Under the pieces are notes generated by a model. The model was not told the origin of the DNA. It saw only the letters and a program-made list of their open reading frames with translations, and did not search any database. From J061 sp003695725 [NCBI: Candidatus Schekmanbacteria bacterium] (GTDB taxonomy: Bacteria > Schekmanbacteria > GWA2-38-11): a stretch of 7,079 bases of DNA. Positions 171 to 7,079 of the stretch are shown piece after piece; the stretch's first letter is position 1; the number at the start of each line of letters is the position of its first letter. The translations under genes and the position numbers were made by a program. The stretch is from assembly GCA_003695725.1 (NCBI GenBank), contig RFHX01000105.1, forward strand, positions 1-7,079, read 5' to 3'.

Positions 171-1697
171 TTATTTCTTTCCGCGGGTAGGGACAAGCCT
201 TGTTGGATTGGAAACATGTTTCGGGTCGAAGGACTTGCCGATCTTCTCCATAAGTAAATGGTAATTGCCCGTCGCCTTTCCTATCTGCTCGTGGTGTTGT
301 GACCATTGCGCACCGGGATAGGCACCCATCTTTATATCATGGTCTATTGAAGCAACCTCATATTCCAAAAACTTATCAACCATACTCTTGTCAAAATAAG
401 AGAAGAATTCTCCGTAACCGATATGCCCCATATCATAACTCTGCATCCAACCGCTTTCTTCACTATCGTCGAAGAAAGGCGGGATAAAATTAGCTTTGAG
501 GTCTGCTGTCTCTGATAGGGCGCGCCTTGCATGGTCAAGTGAATCGAAAGCAAACTTCGTAACAGCAAAAAAGCCGGCTGGCACTGTCACATTACTTGAA
601 ATTCCGAGCTTGAAAACCTGCCCACTCGAATATGGTGATGCTTCTTCTATCTCACCGCCGATTTCAGAAACAATATCTCGCAGGACTTTTTCCTCATACT
701 CAAGCTGTTCCTCTGATGCAAAACCAACCAACATAACTCGAACCATACTTGGAGTAGCTTTCCCAAATTTATGCTTATCTGCATTCCACTTTGCAGCAAA
801 ATCGTCTCGCGACTTTGCCCGCGCAATATATCTCCAAATAAAGGGCACGCGAACGCTTACAGCAGCTATCTCAGAATGTCCTATTTCATACATCGCATCG
901 ATGGCTTTTTCCGTTGTTGGGAAAAAGATTGTAAACCATTTGAAACGGTCTTCAGGAAGCTTAAAAGCTGTATTTGGAGATACACCAACGCTTTTGGGCA
1001 CTCCCTTGAAAGGCATAGGAAAAAGTTTTACAGCCATTTTCGTTACTATTCCCAAGCCGCCGAAATTACCAAACCAACCTCTCATAATACCGCGTAAATC
1101 AGGTCCGGGACCTTCTCCCCAAAAATAATCATCTCCGTTAGTGGCTGACCCTGTTCTAATCAATTCCCCGTCAGGCAATATCCATTCAGCGGCAAGCACT
1201 CTTCTATTTGCATATCCAACACGATGTACTAGCTGTCCCATCCCTTGATTGAGATGATTAGCGATAACAGAAACCTGTGCACCGCAGGAAGGGGCGCTTG
1301 TATAAAGCCCCAATTTCATTGCTTCTGTTTGAAGCTCTGTATAGGTAACATAGGGCTCTACTATGGCATACATATTTTCTTCATCTATCTCGAGCTTATC
1401 CATCCGCTTCATATCAATCATTATCGTATTGGGCTTAATTGGAACACACAAAGCGATATAGAAAGTGCCAAGAGGAATATAGGGAAGCTTGTAACGATTT
1501 GCAATTTTGACTATTGCCTGCACCTCTTCTGTGCTTGATGGCAGGACAACACAACCGGGTATTTTCCTATTTCTATCCCACGAAAACTTGCCATAACCGC
1601 CGCGGGAATATGCTTCACATTTAGTTTTGGAATCCGTAAAATTTTCTTCACCAACTACTGCAATGAGTTCCTTCTTGGCTTCAATCGGTAATGCCAT
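171..1697 (-). CDS. FAD-binding oxidase/dehydrogenase (COG0277), second FAD subunit of the trio
   Basis: Second VAO/PCMH-type flavoprotein of the operon, 508 residues, clearly different from the protein at 2985-4436. The FAD domain covers about 46-228: VVLPSSTEEVQAIVKIANRY (50-69), loop YIPLGTFYIALCVP (73-86), IDMKRMDKL (94-102), AIVEPYVTY (111-119), a segment GAQVSVIANHLNQGMGQLVH (139-158) at the pyrophosphate-binding region, LPDGELIRTGS (174-184), GPGPDLRG (196-203) and FGGLGIVTKMAVKLF (212-226). The C-terminus SFDPKHVSNPTRL (489-501) is the diverged form of the family's FDPxxxxNPGR end. The glycine-rich loop is again degenerate and HxGDGNxH is absent; MGHIGYGEFF (423-432) is a candidate active-site strand. 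A GGAG ribosome site lies 9 bases before ATG 1697, 17 bases after the Fe-S stop codon. It may be a catalytic partner of the first FAD protein, as in GlcD/GlcE, or have its own substrate. Confidence 0.9.
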   Translation of the reverse strand: MALPIEAKKELIAVVGEENFTDSKTKCEAYSRGGYGKFSWDRNRKIPGCVVLPSSTEEVQAIVKIANRYKLPYIPLGTFYIALCVPIKPNTIMIDMKRMDKLEIDEENMYAIVEPYVTYTELQTEAMKLGLYTSAPSCGAQVSVIANHLNQGMGQLVHRVGYANRRVLAAEWILPDGELIRTGSATNGDDYFWGEGPGPDLRGIMRGWFGNFGGLGIVTKMAVKLFPMPFKGVPKSVGVSPNTAFKLPEDRFKWFTIFFPTTEKAIDAMYEIGHSEIAAVSVRVPFIWRYIARAKSRDDFAAKWNADKHKFGKATPSMVRVMLVGFASEEQLEYEEKVLRDIVSEIGGEIEEASPYSSGQVFKLGISSNVTVPAGFFAVTKFAFDSLDHARRALSETADLKANFIPPFFDDSEESGWMQSYDMGHIGYGEFFSYFDKSMVDKFLEYEVASIDHDIKMGAYPGAQWSQHHEQIGKATGNYHLLMEKIGKSFDPKHVSNPTRLVPTRGKK

Positions 1698-1714: not shown

Positions 1715-2968
1715 TTAAATAACTTTTGCAACCAACTCAGTAAAATCCATTATTTCGAGATTCTCATTTTCATTAGCTTCAGAAAAATTCCATTTACAAA
1801 ATGGACAGGAAGAAACAAGGATTTCTGCATCTGTCTGTCCTGCCTCTTCAAGGCGCTCTTTTGCACTCCAAAGAGAAAAATCATTATAAATCCATTTCAC
1901 CATTCCACCTGCACCGCAGCACCAAGTGTTTTCTTTCATACGCTCCATCTCTCGAAGCTCAATTCCAGAAATTTTACCGAATACATTACGCGGCGCATCA
2001 TAGACACCGTTGGTGCCTCTTCTCCAAACTTTTGGAGGATCAGTTCTTCCAAACTCAATCCGTTTGCCATCCCAATGGACATAGGGCTCCGACAATCTGC
2101 CAAGCCGACAAGAATCGTGATATGTGATTTTTTTCTCTAAACTTCCACTAATTTTAAGGCGTCCCTCTTCCAAGAGCTTTTCAGTATATTCGCTTATGTG
2201 CAGTATCTCATAATCGGTACCGCTCTTTTCTGCAAGCCGCGGATAATCTACTTTCCACATATGATAACATTCTGCACAAGATGTAACTATCGTATTGCAT
2301 CCGCTCTCGGACAATAATTGGAGATTCTTCTCTCTTATCTCGTCAGCTTCCTTTTTGTATCCAAGACGAATAAGTGGATTTCCACAGCACTGCTCCTGAG
2401 GGAAAAGTTTGTAAGAAACGCTTGCACTTTCCAATATTCTGACTGTCGACTGCGCAATTGAATTGTAACGATATGAAGCAGAACACCCTACAAAATAGAG
2501 AACTTCAGGAGGAGAATCTTCTCTCGATGCTTCTCCACTCCTATACCAATCAACCCTTTTTTGCGGAGAGGCGCCATATAAATTGCCTTTTGATACGACA
2601 TTTGCCAGAATCTTTTTTTGCACAGGAGCCACCTTACCGCCTTTCTCTATATAACGGCATCTAAATGCCTCAATTACTTCCAATCTTTCATTGTCTATAC
2701 ACCTCTTGCACATAACATCACAGGCACCACAAAGAGTACAATGATAAAGTATTTCATAAAGGTCTTTGTTGATGCCGATTTCCCCGTCAAGATACGCAAG
2801 AGCTATATCCATAATCCCTTGGCAGGAAAAGGAATCAAATTTAAATTTTGTGTTTATAGGACATATTTTATTGAATCGCTTGCTTTTGGAATACATCGGG
2901 TCAATCCATTTGCAGGATGAAGACCTAACGCACATTTCAACATCATATCTATATTTTTCTAGTTCCAT
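1715..2968 (-). CDS. (Fe-S)-binding protein with two CCG domains (HdrD/GlcF/GlpC-like)
   Basis: Electron-transfer subunit, 417 residues, close to GlcF length. The N-terminus holds ferredoxin-like cysteines: C13, C19 and C36-P, with serine at 16 where a CxxCxxC motif would have its middle cysteine, then a full C77xxC80xxC83xxxC87. Two CCG (cysteine-rich) domains follow. The first has C162, C194-C195-G and C231xxC234; the second has C287, C350-C351-G and C388xxC391. In HdrB/HdrD-type proteins such domains bind non-cubane or 4Fe-4S clusters. Between CRLGR (287-291) and GVYDAPR (321-327) there is an extra segment of about 28 residues. The gene lies between two FAD oxidases with gaps of 16 and 17 bases, so it very likely takes electrons from them and passes them to a quinone, ferredoxin or membrane partner not seen here. 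The start ATG at 2968 has AGGAGA 12 bases upstream, overlapping the preceding stop codon. Confidence 0.92.
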   Translation of the reverse strand: MELEKYRYDVEMCVRSSSCKWIDPMYSKSKRFNKICPINTKFKFDSFSCQGIMDIALAYLDGEIGINKDLYEILYHCTLCGACDVMCKRCIDNERLEVIEAFRCRYIEKGGKVAPVQKKILANVVSKGNLYGASPQKRVDWYRSGEASREDSPPEVLYFVGCSASYRYNSIAQSTVRILESASVSYKLFPQEQCCGNPLIRLGYKKEADEIREKNLQLLSESGCNTIVTSCAECYHMWKVDYPRLAEKSGTDYEILHISEYTEKLLEEGRLKISGSLEKKITYHDSCRLGRLSEPYVHWDGKRIEFGRTDPPKVWRRGTNGVYDAPRNVFGKISGIELREMERMKENTWCCGAGGMVKWIYNDFSLWSAKERLEEAGQTDAEILVSSCPFCKWNFSEANENENLEIMDFTELVAKVI

Positions 2969-2984: not shown

Positions 2985-4436
2985 CTAAAAGGATAACCTG
3001 CCCGGGTTCATTATTCCGGCAGGGTCAAATATATTTTTGATTTTCCTAACGGCTTCCCTATATCCGCCTGTTTTATCAAAAATTATTTTTCCAACATCTC
3101 CATAAGGTGTGCTGAAAAAAGCTCCTTCGCTATTCAATCCCATAACTGCTTGTCTATTGAAAGAAAGAATTTTATCAGAAATATCCTTCCCATTGTCTTC
3201 ATAATACAAATGATGTTCACAATGATAAGCCCTGCCATATTCAATTGGCTGAATATATAATCCACACTCTATATTTTTCATATTTGTCGTTGAAACTATC
3301 TGCTCATATTTGGAAAGGAGATGAGGAATTCTATTCGCTGTAGTCTTATAGGAAATTTGAAGGACTCGTCCTTTCAACATATTCTTCCAATAAACCTTCT
3401 CATCTGGCCAACATTTTTCAACATTTCCTTTTAGCCACTCGCTTTCCTGCTCAAAGGAAGATGAAATTTCATTATCTTTATCTTTCATAATCTCTTTTAG
3501 CGCTTTTTCTTCATAGGCAATTTTTTCTTCCGGCCTTCTCTTTGCGCCTCTTAACATAAGCATTGCAAGAAATTTAGGCAATTTTCGCTTCAGCGCTTCA
3601 CATTTTGAAATATCGCCCTGAGAGAGAATCAATGATGCATTGGTATTATCGAGAATAAAACATTCCTGACCTATCATCGAGCGTTGAATCTTTTGTATGT
3701 CACTTATTGCATCCTCAATTCCTTCATAACCAAAAAGGAATAGCTTTTTCAATGGAGAACGATGTTCAAGTTTTACTGCTGCCCATGTTACAACTCCTAA
3801 TGTTCCCTGCGCTCCGTGGAAAAGTCGGAAAAAATCCATTCCCGGTCCATAAGGGCAAACCAAATCAACAGCAGGATTGTCGCCTTTATAAGACATTGTG
3901 ATAGAGGCAGAACCGGTTCTCATAAGGTCGCCTGTCGGAAAAACGGCTTCAAGAGTAAGGATTGGGTCTGCATACTCAAACTTTGGAATCAGAGCAGGCA
4001 CTCTTTCCAACAAATCAGTAAGCGCTGATGTCCCTGAATGAGGGAAAAGAGGATTGAACATTCTCAATTTTTTTTTCTCAAGCTCCTCATCGATTTTTTT
4101 CCAGCTAACTCCTGGTTCAATAATTATTTTTCTGTTCCTCTCATCGATGAGAAGGATTTTATCCATTTCGGACATATCGAGGAGTATTCCACCCTGCGTG
4201 GGTAGCGATGCTCCATTAAAATGTATCTTTGAGCTTGAAGGGACAACAGGAATTTTCTTCTTGTTTGCTAATTTAAGAATGTTTTTAATCTCATCGGCAC
4301 TTTTTACTTTCACTGCGTAATTCGGCATTTTGCCTTTGAAAGGGCTCTCATCAGCGCAATACCTTAATAAACTATCAGTATCTTCTACTATATTTTCATT
4401 ACCAACTATTTTCTTTAACTCTTCTCTAACTGACAA
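2985..4436 (-). CDS. FAD-binding oxidase/dehydrogenase (GlcD/GlcE-like, COG0277), first subunit of the trio
   Basis: Cytoplasmic FAD-dependent oxidoreductase of the VAO/PCMH superfamily, 483 residues, about the length of GlcD. The PCMH FAD domain spans roughly 38-225: AVKVKSADEIKNILKLANK (41-59), the loop PVVPSSSKIHFNGASLP (63-79), LLDMSEMDKI (85-94), IIIEPGVSW (104-112), then FPTGDLMRTGSAS (166-178), GPGMDFFRLFHGAQGTLGVV (197-216). The C-terminal cap ends with the family signature NIFDPAGIMNPGRL (468-481). The first loop has lost the usual GGGTS-type glycines, and there is no HxGDGNxH as in GlcD/D-LDH; a histidine-rich stretch GRAYHCEHHLYY (401-412) may line the active site instead. It starts at TTG with a strong ribosome site. 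Its stop codon overlaps the ribosome site of the Fe-S gene 16 bases downstream, which supports co-translation. The substrate is unknown; an organic acid or alcohol is the family expectation. Confidence 0.9.
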   Translation of the reverse strand: MSVREELKKIVGNENIVEDTDSLLRYCADESPFKGKMPNYAVKVKSADEIKNILKLANKKKIPVVPSSSKIHFNGASLPTQGGILLDMSEMDKILLIDERNRKIIIEPGVSWKKIDEELEKKKLRMFNPLFPHSGTSALTDLLERVPALIPKFEYADPILTLEAVFPTGDLMRTGSASITMSYKGDNPAVDLVCPYGPGMDFFRLFHGAQGTLGVVTWAAVKLEHRSPLKKLFLFGYEGIEDAISDIQKIQRSMIGQECFILDNTNASLILSQGDISKCEALKRKLPKFLAMLMLRGAKRRPEEKIAYEEKALKEIMKDKDNEISSSFEQESEWLKGNVEKCWPDEKVYWKNMLKGRVLQISYKTTANRIPHLLSKYEQIVSTTNMKNIECGLYIQPIEYGRAYHCEHHLYYEDNGKDISDKILSFNRQAVMGLNSEGAFFSTPYGDVGKIIFDKTGGYREAVRKIKNIFDPAGIMNPGRLSF

Positions 4437-4708: not shown

Positions 4709-5272
4709 CTATACCTCAGAATAACACTCTGCTCTAATTACACATCTGTTGTCATTGGCAAGGCTCTTCTTCATCGACACCTTAACTCTGACGCCTGTTT
4801 TATCATATATTATGTCGCTCACTGTCCGACAAAAATTCCAGCAGGGCATTTTTTTAGCTTCTTCATCACCTGCTTTTTCCTTCAATTTATTGAATAATTC
4901 ACAATCTCTAACTTCATATTCAATGGCATTACTTGAAACTTCCTTGTAAATCCAATCATCATCAGGACGAAGTGCATAGAAGCTGATTTCGAGCAATCTT
5001 TGAGGAATACTTGGAAAAATATGCCCGGTTTTTTTTGCAACCTCATATACAACTTCAGCCATCCTATCCCTATGATTCTTTTCTTCATCACAAATTATTT
5101 CAGCAAGAGTTTTACCTTTGGTCGAAAAATATTTTTTTACATCCTCATCTTTATTAGATGAATCTTCCCCTTTAACCTTTTCCAAATAACCTGATAATAA
5201 TGAATCCACAGAAACCCTCTCTTCAATTGAATCCAAAAAATCCAGATCCAATCCATATTGATATTTAGCCAT
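4709..5272 (-). CDS. Cysteine-containing protein of unknown function, paralogue A (187 aa)
   Basis: I do not recognise this gene by name; it is the sister of the protein at 5453-6019. The first 55 residues are charged and variable. The conserved core is RDRMAEVVYEVAKKTGH (68-84) plus FPSIPQRLLE (86-95). Shared cysteines are C124, C144, C148 (MPCWNFC) and C177 (DNRCVI); C61 and C183 are specific to this copy. It has no signal peptide, membrane segment or known catalytic triad that I can see. The ATG at 5272 has a good AAGGAGG (5286-5280) with 7 bases spacing, so the start is secure. Because a terminator separates it from paralogue B, it should have its own promoter. A TTGACT lies at 5323-5318, but the nearest TATATT is 23 bases further on, so no convincing sigma70 promoter is visible. 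Cysteine binding of a metal, cofactor or thiol ligand is a reasonable but unproven idea. Confidence 0.85.
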   Translation of the reverse strand: MAKYQYGLDLDFLDSIEERVSVDSLLSGYLEKVKGEDSSNKDEDVKKYFSTKGKTLAEIICDEEKNHRDRMAEVVYEVAKKTGHIFPSIPQRLLEISFYALRPDDDWIYKEVSSNAIEYEVRDCELFNKLKEKAGDEEAKKMPCWNFCRTVSDIIYDKTGVRVKVSMKKSLANDNRCVIRAECYSEV

Positions 5273-5279
5273 TGCAATC

Positions 5280-5286
5280 CCTCCTT
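5280..5286 (-). promoter_or_regulatory. Ribosome binding site of paralogue A
   Basis: AAGGAGG lies 7 bases upstream of the ATG at 5272. It is a near-perfect anti-16S match and confirms this start codon. Confidence 0.8.
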
Positions 5287-5368
5287 AAAATATATGAGGA
5301 CTTTTTCCTAAATACTAAGTCAAGGATTTTCATTCATTCTTAACCACATTATCTGTTGGCTAATGCAC

Positions 5369-5405
5369 AAAAAAAATAAGGGTTTCCTCATAGCGAAGAA
5401 ACCCT
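5369..5405 (-). terminator. Rho-independent terminator after paralogue B
   Basis: On the minus strand the sequence AGGGTTTC (5405-5398) pairs perfectly with GAAACCCT (5386-5379). After one mismatch, two more pairs close a loop of about five bases. The stem is followed directly by TTATTTTTTTT. This is a classical intrinsic terminator facing the right way for the transcript of the GltD-like gene and paralogue B, about 48 bases after the stop codon of B. A small GC hairpin, CCCC-GCA-GGGG (5444-5434), sits between that stop codon and the terminator. Confidence 0.88.
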
Positions 5406-5452
5406 CAATTATATTCATCCAATCATTTTATACCCCCTGCGGGGAATATGAT

Positions 5453-6019
5453 TTATTCAAAATGGTAAAAACCATCAAACTGACAGTGTCCGTCAGTAGG
5501 AAGCGCAGCCTTCATTTTAACTCCTACATCCATATTCAACTCTTTGTAGAATGTTTCAGACAGCGCAATACAGTAATGTCTGCAGGGTAATGTATCTGCA
5601 ATCTCTTTTCCTACTGCTTCTACAAGCGCATCATAAACTGTGCACTTTTTGACTGAATAAGCAAGGCGCTTATAGGATATGCACACCCATCTCCATTTGT
5701 CTTCAAGACGAGTTGACAACAGCGCCATCTCAATCAATCTCTGTGGAATACTTGGAAAATGGTGTCCCGTTTTTTCAGCCACTTCATAAATTAACTCAGC
5801 TGTTCTATCGCGGACATCCTTTTCTGTTTGAAGAATATGTTTTGCAAGAGCAGATGCATATTCTTCAAAAATCTTTTTCCCTGCTTCATCTGCTTCTTCA
5901 GGGCTTTTCCCCTTTACTGCTTCAGCAAATTTTTTAACTACCTCTGATACGGGAAACGCCTGATTCACTGATTCAAAATAGTCTTCATCAATAAAATACT
6001 TCTTACTTGTTGCATTCAT
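5453..6019 (-). CDS. Cysteine-containing protein of unknown function, paralogue B (188 aa)
   Basis: I do not recognise this gene. It encodes a soluble, mostly helical-looking protein with no signal peptide or membrane segment. The N-terminal 55 residues are acidic and variable. A core runs RDRTAELIYEVAEKTGH then FPSIPQRLIE (70-97), followed by C126, C146xxxC150 (LPCRHYC), and C179 close to the C-terminus (DGHCQF). It aligns without gaps to the protein encoded at 4709-5272 from residue 58 onward, with about 40% identity, and all four of these cysteines are shared. C113 is specific to this copy. The C-terminal pattern (Cys pair, a V-G-V-K-M strand, then D-G-H-C-x-F) weakly recalls V4R ligand-binding domains and ATC-hydrolase-like proteins; this is inference only. 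It starts 35 bases after the GltD-like gene and probably shares its transcript, which ends at the terminator just downstream. Confidence 0.85.
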   Translation of the reverse strand: MNATSKKYFIDEDYFESVNQAFPVSEVVKKFAEAVKGKSPEEADEAGKKIFEEYASALAKHILQTEKDVRDRTAELIYEVAEKTGHHFPSIPQRLIEMALLSTRLEDKWRWVCISYKRLAYSVKKCTVYDALVEAVGKEIADTLPCRHYCIALSETFYKELNMDVGVKMKAALPTDGHCQFDGFYHFE

Positions 6020-6054: not shown

Positions 6055-7079
6055 TTATCTAACTGCTGTTACTCCCTTTGTATCAACCTTCTTTTCTATA
6101 TAGTCACAACGAAGACATCTCTCGCATTCACGGAGAGCATCTTCTTTCCTCAATGCAAGTTCGACTTCTACATCCTTCCTCCTTTCCGTCACCGGTACAG
6201 TTGGAGCTTCGATACGCTCAAAAGGCGCAGGTGCAGACCTCAAATTATAGGGCACAGTGTCTTCATAAGGTTCAAGCCAAAAACAGGCAGAACGTTCTTC
6301 TTTCGGCAAATCTCGGGATAAATACTTATTGATTGAAACAGCTGCTTTTTCTCCTGAGCCGACTGCATCAGCAATTGTAGCAGGGCCTGTTACAACATCT
6401 CCTCCTGCAAAGACATCTTCAACAGTTGTTTTCATCTCATGGTCAGCATAGATATAGCCGGTGTAGGAAAGTCCTATGCCGCTGTCCTTCATAATGGTCT
6501 CAGCATCGATTTTCTGCCCAATCGCCGCTATAACTGTGTTAGTTTCAACTTCAAAGTCTTCTCCCTCGACAGGCACAGACCTCCTTCTACCATTGAGGTC
6601 ATAACCTTTTATTTCCATCTTGCCGCAGATTAGTTTCTTTACCTTACCACTTTCACCAACAATCTTTAATGGTCGTGCAAGAAATAAAAATTTTATTCCC
6701 TCTTTTTCTGCTTCTTTAATCTCGTCTTTAATAGCTGGCATCTCTTCGCGGTCACGTCTGTAAATTATAGTAACATCAGAACCCAACCTGAAAGCCGTAC
6801 GCGCCGCATCTATAGCCGCATTTCCTCCTCCTATGACGGAAACCTTTTTCCCAAGATTTGGCTCGATTCCCTTTCTAAAATCTTTAAGCAAATCCCAAGC
6901 CTGAATTACTCCGTCTAAATCTTCTCCTTCTATGCCAAGTGGCGTTGGTGATTGAGCCCCTATTGCAATATAAAATGCTTTGTATCCTTCTTTTCGCAAC
7001 TCGTTCAAAGAGATATCCTTCCCAACTTCACAATTGAGCTTGAGTTCAATGCCTGTGCTCAATATGAAATCGATATCCC
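6055..7079 (-). CDS. GltD-like FAD/NAD(P)-binding oxidoreductase, C-terminal part (5' end outside window)
   Basis: Flavoprotein of the glutamate-synthase small-subunit (GltD) superfamily. Such proteins pass electrons between NAD(P)H, FAD and Fe-S partners in the cytoplasm. Residues are numbered from a TTG at 7062, but the frame stays open to the window edge and the codons before it still fit the family (DIDFIL...), so that TTG is internal and the gene is partial. Visible parts: the end of the first FAD half (YIAIGAQ, 31-37), an NAD(P)-binding Rossmann motif GGGNAAIDAAR (78-88) followed by YRRDREEMPA (101-110), AAIGQ (179-183), and the second FAD motif FAGGDVVTGPATIADAVGSG (218-237). A tail of about 80 residues ends in C313xxC316xxC319, like the EAxRCLxCD tails of GltD-like proteins that work with Fe-S modules. 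No fourth cysteine follows. The true partner and substrate are unknown; real glutamate synthase activity is unlikely to be provable from this part alone. The superfamily call is firm. Confidence 0.9.
   Translation of the reverse strand, partial: DIDFILSTGIELKLNCEVGKDISLNELRKEGYKAFYIAIGAQSPTPLGIEGEDLDGVIQAWDLLKDFRKGIEPNLGKKVSVIGGGNAAIDAARTAFRLGSDVTIIYRRDREEMPAIKDEIKEAEKEGIKFLFLARPLKIVGESGKVKKLICGKMEIKGYDLNGRRRSVPVEGEDFEVETNTVIAAIGQKIDAETIMKDSGIGLSYTGYIYADHEMKTTVEDVFAGGDVVTGPATIADAVGSGEKAAVSINKYLSRDLPKEERSACFWLEPYEDTVPYNLRSAPAPFERIEAPTVPVTERRKDVEVELALRKEDALRECERCLRCDYIEKKVDTKGVTAVR

What the first reader, a model, noticed from the sequence alone, without database searches (positions are those of the whole stretch)
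4709..6019. Tandem paralogues of an unrecognised cysteine protein family among redox genes
The two small proteins (187 and 188 aa) align without gaps over about 130 residues, with roughly 50 identities. They share the core RDRxAExxYEVAxKTGH and FPSIPQRLxE, and four cysteines (124/126, 144/146, 148/150, 177/179) including a CxxxC. The N-terminal 55 residues are not conserved. I cannot name the family. The cysteine pattern and last 45 residues weakly resemble V4R small-molecule-binding domains or ATC-hydrolase-like proteins. Inference: a metal-, cofactor- or thiol-binding partner or sensor for the surrounding redox enzymes, perhaps acting as a heterodimer.
Basis: partly seen in the sequence, partly recalled or inferred. 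Interest (0 to 1): 0.6.

Follow-up and report, generated by a model that had tools for sequence, protein, structure and literature searches.

The report
Ferredoxin-linked V4R-fold cysteine protein pair
Two neighbouring genes make a matched pair of small cysteine-bearing proteins, predicted to have the fold of bacterial phenol sensors, that belong to an unnamed family found beside the same two electron-carrying iron-sulphur proteins in distantly related bacteria; they are probably ligand-binding partners of a redox complex, but nothing about their activity has been tested.

Summary
In detail: P0002 (5453-6019, -) and P0001 (4709-5272, -) align without gaps over 173 residues (65 identities, E 3e-44) and share four cysteines; the N-terminus is weakly conserved, not unconserved. 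No Pfam, NCBIfam or PADLOC model names them. AlphaFold models of both match V4R/Bet3 structures (MopR: Z 12.7 for P0002, 11.3 for P0001). Profile comparison links the family to ATC_hydrolase (91.9%; controls at most 1.1%), and that set to V4R (93.2%); direct family-V4R is 2.1%. It is an unnamed branch of the V4R/ATC_hydrolase/H-NOX superfamily with a changed Cys site. In six of six carriers found outside the window's phylum the gene is third in a collinear module: long Cys-rich ferredoxin, short dicluster ferredoxin, V4R-like protein; ATC_hydrolase loci mostly lack this (2 of 30). In the window's phylum the gene is duplicated and joined to a ferredoxin-GltD fusion and a GlcDEF-like FAD/Fe-S/FAD trio, whose flavoprotein co-occurs with the module even where unlinked. 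Best reading: a metal-thiolate, ligand-binding A/B heterodimer that docks on ferredoxins and serves the flavoprotein complex; metal, ligand, pairing and activity are inferred. New variant of a known kind; interest 0.5.

The parts
5453..6019 (-). P0002, copy B of the V4R-like four-Cys protein (188 aa). Cys codons: C126 5642-5644, C146 5582-5584, C150 5570-5572, C179 5483-5485
   Evidence: AF2 pLDDT 81.6 / pTM 0.79; MopR aromatic-sensor domain Z 12.7, rmsd 3.2, 162 aligned
4709..5272 (-). P0001, copy A of the same family (187 aa). Cys codons: C124 4901-4903, C144 4841-4843, C148 4829-4831, C177 4742-4744
   Evidence: AF2 pLDDT 76.9 / pTM 0.78; TRAPPC3 Z 11.4 and MopR Z 11.3
6055..7077 (-). C-terminal part of a GltD-like NAD(P)H oxidoreductase, cut by the contig end. 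In G001 the whole protein carries an N-terminal dicluster-ferredoxin module
   Evidence: Pyr_redox_2 1.7e-29; whole protein in L011 with Fer4_9, Fer4_20 and Pyr_redox_2
2985..4436 (-). FAD1: FAD_binding_4 flavoprotein (GlcD-like), P0005
   Evidence: 6.3e-19; closest solved structures include D-lactate dehydrogenase and VAO-type flavoproteins
1715..2968 (-). Fe-S subunit with two CCG domains (HdrB/GlpC-like), P0004
   Evidence: CCG 5.7e-33, two stretches; HdrB and iron-sulphur-binding reductase structures
171..1697 (-). FAD2: FAD_binding_4 flavoprotein whose FAD domain resembles eugenol / vanillyl-alcohol oxidase and p-cresol methylhydroxylase among others, P0003
   Evidence: 4.6e-23; best solved chains (titled only 'Oxidoreductase') 5e-23 over residues 38-230
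5377..5407 (-). Intrinsic-terminator-like hairpin (14 pairs by the scan, then a T run) between copy B and copy A
   Evidence: 98-nt stretch, fold z -3.19; no minus-strand match in the stretches of L011 and L012 that hold both copies

Best explanation
The two genes encode diverged paralogues of one unnamed protein family with the V4R / Bet3 / H-NOX fold (a prediction, well supported). Elsewhere it is a single gene that follows a long Cys-rich ferredoxin (FdL) and a short dicluster ferredoxin (FdS). The most likely working: four conserved thiolates (C126, C146, C150, C179 of P0002) hold a metal, probably zinc, next to the hydrophobic V4R ligand pocket. The protein dimerises (A with B here, with itself elsewhere), binds a small hydrophobic or aromatic ligand, and docks on the ferredoxins, so that electrons from the ferredoxin-GltD oxidoreductase and from the FAD/Fe-S/FAD (GlcDEF-like) complex meet that ligand. 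SHOWN: homology of the two copies, conserved Cys, predicted fold, gene module, co-occurrence with the FAD2 flavoprotein. INFERRED: metal, its identity, ligand pocket use, A/B pairing, docking, direction of electron flow.
For: Fold: P0002 model against MopR/PoxR/DmpR Z 12.7-11.9 over 158-163 residues, then Bet3/TRAPP about 10 and H-NOX about 7.7; P0001 model gives the same families, TRAPPC3 11.4 and V4R sensors 11.3-10.8. Profile link family to ATC_hydrolase 91.9%, E 7.2e-7; ATC to V4R 93.2%; eight controls at most 1.07%; 20 random ATC subsets gave 72-96% and 53-95%. C126, C146 and C179 are invariant in 11 of 11 full sequences, C150 in 10 of 11; the split G017 gene keeps all four when its two pieces are read apart. 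Collinear FdL-FdS-V4R module in 6 of 6 carriers outside the window's phylum. Flank test (an ORF with CxxCxxCxxxC within about 1.5 kb): 6 of 6 of those carriers, 2 of 30 ATC_hydrolase loci, 1 of 25 V4R loci. Co-occurrence: all 8 carriers have an FdL hit of 370 bits or more and 7 of 8 a FAD2 hit at 1e-40; the only other genome with either is G003 of the same order. Precedent: clusters of one Fe-S protein with two V4R proteins of distinct clades (PMC10151467), whose Synechocystis form interacts physically (PMC9880817). In DmpR zinc is held by C151/E172/C177/C185, with W128 between zinc and phenol (PMC7264223).
Against: No direct profile match to V4R (2.1%); in Pfam the best match of any of 11 members is an unrelated family at E 0.037. 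Foldseek's own E-values are weak (best 4.5e-3; rank 1 is an H-NOX, rank 2 a designed protein), and the tool's note says that helical bundles can reach Z 13 without kinship. The DmpR zinc-ligand set is not conserved: the E..C motif before the last Cys is missing, and C150 is Asp in G002 copy A. R104, D107, W109 and P145, invariant in the 11 full sequences, are not kept in G017. No coordinates were available to measure S-S distances. The models rest on three sequences. The flank test fails in the window's own phylum (0 of 3 genomes), because the nearest clusters there lie further upstream, in the GltD fusion. In one carrier lineage of five (G035) no FAD2 homologue was found at 1e-40. The 370-bit cut was set after seeing the hits; G104 and G178 have weaker ones. 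In this genome a terminator-like hairpin lies between B and A, so equal expression is not assured.
Confidence: 0.45

Rival explanations
1. The four cysteines carry a redox-active iron centre or Fe-S cluster, so the protein is itself an electron-transfer or catalytic subunit rather than a passive binder.
For: Four conserved Cys, two ferredoxins in the module, redox surroundings.
Against: CxxxC with distant Cys is not a classical cluster motif (recalled); no Fer4-type match among the families listed for the 11 members; the related DmpR site holds zinc (PMC7264223).
Confidence: 0.2
2. A thiol/zinc redox switch: the protein senses redox state or a metabolite and gates the complex, as heme-free Vibrio cholerae H-NOX does through Cys oxidation at a zinc site.
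For: Same fold class; zinc/Cys redox sensing reported for an H-NOX protein (PMC7108781, abstract); V4R domains of DmpR-type regulators sense phenols.
Against: No output or DNA-binding domain; collinearity with two ferredoxins suggests a stoichiometric part rather than a sensor; the paralogue pair lies in the middle of an enzyme gene row.
Confidence: 0.15
3. An ATC_hydrolase-type enzyme that opens a thiazoline-like or other C-S bond.
For: Closest sequence relatives by profile are ATC_hydrolase proteins, with the same C...PCxxxC...C layout as those of this phylum.
Against: The family name rests on one activity (recalled; PMC5847659 cites it); no thiazoline or cysteine pathway gene was recognised nearby by eye; 0 of 11 members match the Pfam model.
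Confidence: 0.1
4. An assembly factor or cluster-insertion chaperone for the Fe-S and flavin subunits.
For: Gene position and Cys residues; small size.
Against: The module stands without FAD/Fe-S/FAD genes beside it in the stretches read for G017, G027, G174, G290, G035 and G043.
Confidence: 0.1

Closest known systems
V4R domain (PF02830), as in MopR/PoxR/DmpR phenol sensors
   Same: Predicted fold over almost the whole chain (Z 12.7 and 11.3 to MopR); Cys near the helix start and in the last hairpin; DmpR sensory domains form interlocked dimers (PMC7264223)
   Different: No HMM match; E..C zinc ligands missing, two other Cys added; stand-alone protein, no regulator domains; fixed ferredoxin partners
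ATC_hydrolase family (PF14196)
   Same: Profile similarity 91.9%; shared C...PCxxxC...C layout with members of this phylum
   Different: No match to the Pfam model in 11 of 11; extra FPxxPQR and RPxDKW blocks; no ferredoxin-type motif in the held flanks of 28 of 30 ATC loci
Bilin-type clusters: Fe-S protein + V4R clade A + V4R clade B + globin (slr0144-slr0149; PMC10151467)
   Same: An Fe-S partner and a pair of diverged V4R-fold paralogues in one cluster
   Different: No globin, heme oxygenase or bilin reductase gene recognised by eye in L011 or L012; ferredoxins of another type; own sequence family
Benzene-degrader 'Magic' subcluster #24-26 (FAD, Fe-S, FAD; PMC13101534)
   Same: Same gene order and architecture as FAD1-FeS-FAD2 downstream of the pair; both GlcDEF-like
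   Different: Sequences not held, identity untested; no AMP-binding, MaoC or CoA-transferase gene recognised by eye in the gene rows of L011 and L012; the paper's main text has no V4R or thiazoline mention
H-NOX / HNOB and Bet3/TRAPPC3
   Same: Same fold class (Z about 8 and 10-11); Bet3 forms heterodimers with Trs31 and Trs33 (titles of 2j3r and 2c0j)
   Different: No conserved His for heme in the family; no trafficking context

Membership tests
V4R (PF02830) | Match to the Pfam model above its cut-off | tested here: not met
   0 of 11 members match V4R at E<=1; no V4R hit in G000, G001, G002 at 0.001
V4R (PF02830) | V4R fold | tested here: met
   Predicted models only: Z 12.7 and 11.3 to MopR
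V4R (PF02830) | Zn ligands as in DmpR (C151, E172, C177, C185) | tested here: not met
   Two-step profile alignment keeps the first and last Cys only (my reading); the E..C pair is absent from the 11 sequences. Whether another metal site exists was not tested
ATC_hydrolase (PF14196) | Match to the Pfam model above its cut-off | tested here: not met
   0 of 11 at E<=1; window genes are not among the 9 G000 hits
ATC_hydrolase (PF14196) | Profile-profile similarity over the C-terminal core with matching Cys | tested here: met
   91.9%, E 7.2e-7 over 131 columns; controls at most 1.07%; weaker (9-21%) against three small subsets
ATC_hydrolase (PF14196) | Thiazoline hydrolase activity | not testable with these tools
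   needs enzyme assay
H-NOX / HNOB | Conserved heme-ligating His | tested here: not met
   No His among columns conserved in 10 of 11 or more
H-NOX / HNOB | H-NOX fold | tested here: inconclusive
   Z 7.4-8.4, lower than V4R and Bet3; Foldseek's first rank is an H-NOX at 4.5e-3
Bilin-type Fe-S + V4R pair clusters | Fe-S protein with two V4R-fold paralogues | tested here: met
   In form only: FdL/FdS plus A and B
Bilin-type Fe-S + V4R pair clusters | Globin (BBAG), bilin reductase or heme oxygenase in the cluster | tested here: inconclusive
   None recognised by eye among ORFs of L011 and L012; no HMM scan was run for these
'Magic' benzene-activation complex | FAD, Fe-S, FAD gene order | tested here: met
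   P0005-P0004-P0003, the same row in L011 and L012 and ten trios, nine in this order and one (L127) as Fe-S, FAD1, FAD2
'Magic' benzene-activation complex | High sequence identity to proteins #24-26 | not testable with these tools
   I could not fetch those sequences within the remaining caps

The most novel reading that the evidence does not exclude
FdL, FdS and the V4R-like protein form a previously undescribed substrate-binding and electron-delivery unit for a GlcDEF-like FAD/Fe-S/FAD complex. In the window's phylum the two are fused into one gene row that oxidises or reduces an aromatic or hydrocarbon-derived compound without oxygen, a cousin in architecture of the proposed anaerobic benzene-activating 'Magic' complex, with an A/B V4R heterodimer holding the ring substrate near a thiolate metal site.
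Probability: 0.1. Interest if true: 0.8.

Novelty: new variant of a known kind. Interest (0 to 1): 0.5.

Why it matters
It gives an unnamed protein family, spread over distant lineages, a fold, relatives, a fixed set of partners and a testable job. To my knowledge V4R and ATC_hydrolase proteins are little characterised outside the phenol sensors. A family tied to two specific ferredoxins offers a tractable case to learn whether this fold can serve as a redox subunit rather than a sensor. The co-occurrence with GlcDEF-like FAD/Fe-S/FAD complexes, the architecture now proposed for anaerobic benzene activation, makes its substrate worth knowing.

Tried and rejected
Named-family annotation: no significant match in Pfam (best E 0.037), NCBIfam (best 0.041), PADLOC (none) or PDB sequences (best E-values 0.03 and 0.012, judged chance). 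No homologue in plasmids, viral contigs or, for P0002 alone, in genome contigs. No Rfam match in the window.

Idea that the ferredoxin link is a superfamily trait: not borne out by the flank control, 2 of 30 ATC loci (30 of the 45 matches had loci) and 1 of 25 V4R loci. Flanks are about 1.5 kb, shorter at contig ends, and the test looks only for CxxCxxCxxxC. One of the two ATC positives looks like a radical-SAM activase. The same test on the family itself is positive in 6 of 6 carriers outside the window's phylum and negative in 3 of 3 inside it.

Direct homology to V4R by profile: 2.1%, so the V4R claim rests on the predicted structures and the ATC bridge. Against three small ATC subsets the family scored only 9-21%; the link needs the pooled set.

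I first suspected two copies in G017; its two fragments share 127 15-mers at their contig ends, so they are one gene split by the assembly.

Rows dropped: 5 of 30 ATC loci (L032, L035, L039, L041, L043) were left out of the profile because my frame picker chose a wrong strand or a long or partial frame; one search used 20 of 30. Of 25 V4R loci 20 were used (not L083, L096, L098, L099, L105). G017's fragments were left out of the alignment and tree. The tree leaves the A copies unresolved (open fork); the B clade is supported (98/99).

Cys-Cys distances and complex models were not available. The organism was not identified. The Fisher tests (1e-14, 2.6e-12) ignore shared ancestry, assume that the 280 genomes lie within the 290, use a bit cut chosen after the fact, and are a guide only. 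One paper opened gave nothing (PMC2253512, none of six terms).

Full report
WHAT IS THERE. The window is a whole 7079-base contig (G000:C105) of a 2.77-Mb draft genome in 374 contigs. Six genes lie on the minus strand: GltD-like (cut), P0002, P0001, FAD1, Fe-S (two CCG domains), FAD2. P0002 and P0001 align without gaps over 173 residues, 38% identical, E 3e-44, far above shuffles. Cysteines 124/126, 144/146, 148/150 and 177/179 are shared. The N-terminal part is less conserved (14 of 51 identities against 51 of 122) but in register.

FAMILY. No Pfam, NCBIfam or PADLOC family fits. Searches of whole genomes found the family in 8 of 290 relatives of the window, itself included, and in 8 of 385 relatives of G043 (one carrier, G290, beyond those). 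By phylum of the holder: 3 of 4 held genomes of the window's own phylum, each with the A/B pair; 3 of 3 in that of G027; 1 of 3 in that of G043, whose contig is a record of Deltaproteobacteria bacterium RBG_13_61_14; 1 of 1 in that of G035; and one gene split over two contigs in G017. In 11 full sequences D71, A81, T84, G85, F88, P89, E97, R104, D107, W109, C126, P145, C146 and C179 (P0002 numbering) are invariant apart from the start, and C150 is kept in 10 of 11 (Asp in G002 copy A). G017, read in two pieces and left out of that count, keeps all four Cys but not R104, D107, W109 or P145 (my reading). The tree groups the three B copies (98/99); the A copies fall outside, with an open fork. 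Most simply the duplication is older than the split of the three genomes; the G000 A copy has the longest branch of the six (1.0).

FOLD. AlphaFold2 with three sequences gave pLDDT 81.6 for P0002 and 76.9 for P0001. The best solved structures for P0002 are the aromatic-sensor V4R domains of MopR, PoxR and DmpR (Z 12.7-11.9, rmsd 3.2-3.6, 158-163 aligned), then Bet3/TRAPP (about 10) and H-NOX (about 7.7). P0001 gives the same families (TRAPPC3 Z 11.4, MopR 11.3). Foldseek alone was weak (best E 4.5e-3, an H-NOX). Profile comparison: family against 25 ATC_hydrolase sequences 91.9%, E 7.2e-7; ATC against 20 V4R sequences 93.2%; family against V4R 2.1%; eight controls (seven with reversed sequences, one with FdL) at most 1.07%. 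Twenty random ATC subsets gave 72-96% and 53-95%. A published note had already grouped HNOB, V4R and ATC_hydrolase with a further domain, by predicted secondary structure and a cluster of three Cys (PMC5847659, one passage). Through the two-step alignment the first Cys of PCxxxC and the last Cys fall on V4R cysteines that, in DmpR, bind zinc with E172 and C177 (PMC7264223, passages; the match to DmpR numbering is my reading). The E..C pair is missing here, and C126 and C150 are added. A metal site in the same place with changed ligands is therefore plausible but not measured.

GENE MODULE. In six of six carriers outside the window's phylum the gene is third in a collinear row: FdL (275-310 aa, CxxC start, Cys-rich middle, two 4Fe-4S motifs at the end), FdS (84-120 aa by longest ORF, two clusters), V4R-like (G017, G027, G035, G043, G174, G290). 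The five FdL proteins scanned match known models only in their C-terminal ferredoxin part (only the best 25 NCBIfam rows are shown for each). In the window's phylum (G001) the order is FdL2, FdS, FdL1, FdS-GltD fusion, B, A, FAD1, Fe-S, FAD2; G002 is alike but FdL2-FdS lies on another contig. G000's FdL2, FdS, FdL1 and the start of the fusion lie on contig C262, presumably just upstream of the window. FdL, FdS and the V4R-like gene are thus each doubled in this lineage, as if the whole module had been duplicated (inference). A flank test for a ferredoxin-type motif is positive in 6 of 6 carriers outside the phylum, 0 of 3 genomes inside it (the clusters lie further upstream), 2 of 30 ATC_hydrolase loci and 1 of 25 V4R loci.

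CO-OCCURRENCE. FdL hits of 370 bits or more number 12 in 9 of 280 genomes: all 8 carriers plus G003 of the same order; four weaker hits (127-181 bits) lie in G027 (two), G104 and G178. P0003-like flavoproteins (E<=1e-40) occur in 8 of 280: seven carriers plus G003; G035 is the exception. In G017, G027, G043 and G174 this flavoprotein is on other contigs than the module, within a FAD1/Fe-S/FAD2 trio (ten trios in the ten stretches read, that of L127 in the order Fe-S, FAD1, FAD2). ETF genes directly precede it in G027 and G174, and an ETF alpha gene lies 4 kb upstream in G043. Carriers are few and partly related, so this is a lead, not proof.

HOW IT MOST LIKELY WORKS. The pair is best read as a ligand-binding, metal-thiolate subunit of a ferredoxin-based system. 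Electrons pass between NAD(P)H, the ferredoxin-GltD fusion, FdS/FdL and the GlcDEF-like flavoprotein complex, while the A/B dimer holds a hydrophobic or aromatic ligand. Only gene content, conservation and predicted fold are shown. The nearest published precedent is the cluster of an Fe-S protein, two V4R proteins of distinct clades and a bilin-binding globin (PMC10151467, passages), whose Synechocystis products Slr0144-Slr0149 interact (PMC9880817, one passage). The FAD, Fe-S, FAD order equals that of proteins #24-26 of the 'Magic' cluster proposed for anaerobic benzene activation (PMC13101534: passages, abstract, sections 11, 12 and 15); identity could not be tested. Eugenol oxidase, vanillyl-alcohol oxidase and p-cresol methylhydroxylase are among FAD2's nearest solved relatives, in the FAD domain only; the very best chains are titled just 'Oxidoreductase'.

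VERDICT. It is a new variant of a known fold with a new fixed context. I found no description of it in print: the searches covered open-access papers only, and of the larger result sets I saw only the top of the list.

Noticed in passing
window 5377-5407 (-): A strong terminator-like hairpin (fold z -3.19 for the 98-nt stretch) sits between copy B and copy A in this genome but was not found in the matching stretches of G001 or G002; it may set the A:B ratio or split the gene row.
   Followed up: partly
L011 7512-8441 and 8842-9882 (-); L013 10213-11145 (-); L076 187-1251 (+): FdL is itself an unrecognised family: some 200-280 N-terminal residues with conserved CxxC, CxCxR, YKWERWP and GGxCxC motifs had no Pfam or NCBIfam match in the five members scanned; only the terminal 2x4Fe-4S part is known.
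   Followed up: partly
L011 5754-7466 (-): The GltD-like oxidoreductase carries an N-terminal copy of the FdS-type dicluster ferredoxin, a fusion not seen in the module stretches of the other phyla.
   Followed up: partly
G000, G001, G002, G003: ATC_hydrolase (PF14196) proteins are numerous in this phylum: 9, 6, 6 and 4 matches at E<=0.001, some in tandem, against none in 63 of 78 genomes searched and none in the 14 controls.
   Followed up: partly
L124 3020-9191 (+), L125 3973-10261 (+): FAD1, Fe-S, FAD2 trios directly follow electron transfer flavoprotein genes (EtfA, EtfB), which suggests an ETF-linked dehydrogenase.
   Followed up: partly
L011 10443-12243 (-) and L080 7038-8804 (-): A LeuC/LeuD-like gene pair (named by eye) lies upstream of FdL2 in both G001 and G002, even where FdL2 is separated from the rest of the row.
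   Followed up: no
L012 3007-4116 (-): In G002 a nitronate-monooxygenase-type gene (PF03060, 3.5e-59) overlaps the end of FAD2 by four bases and may belong to the same transcript.
   Followed up: partly
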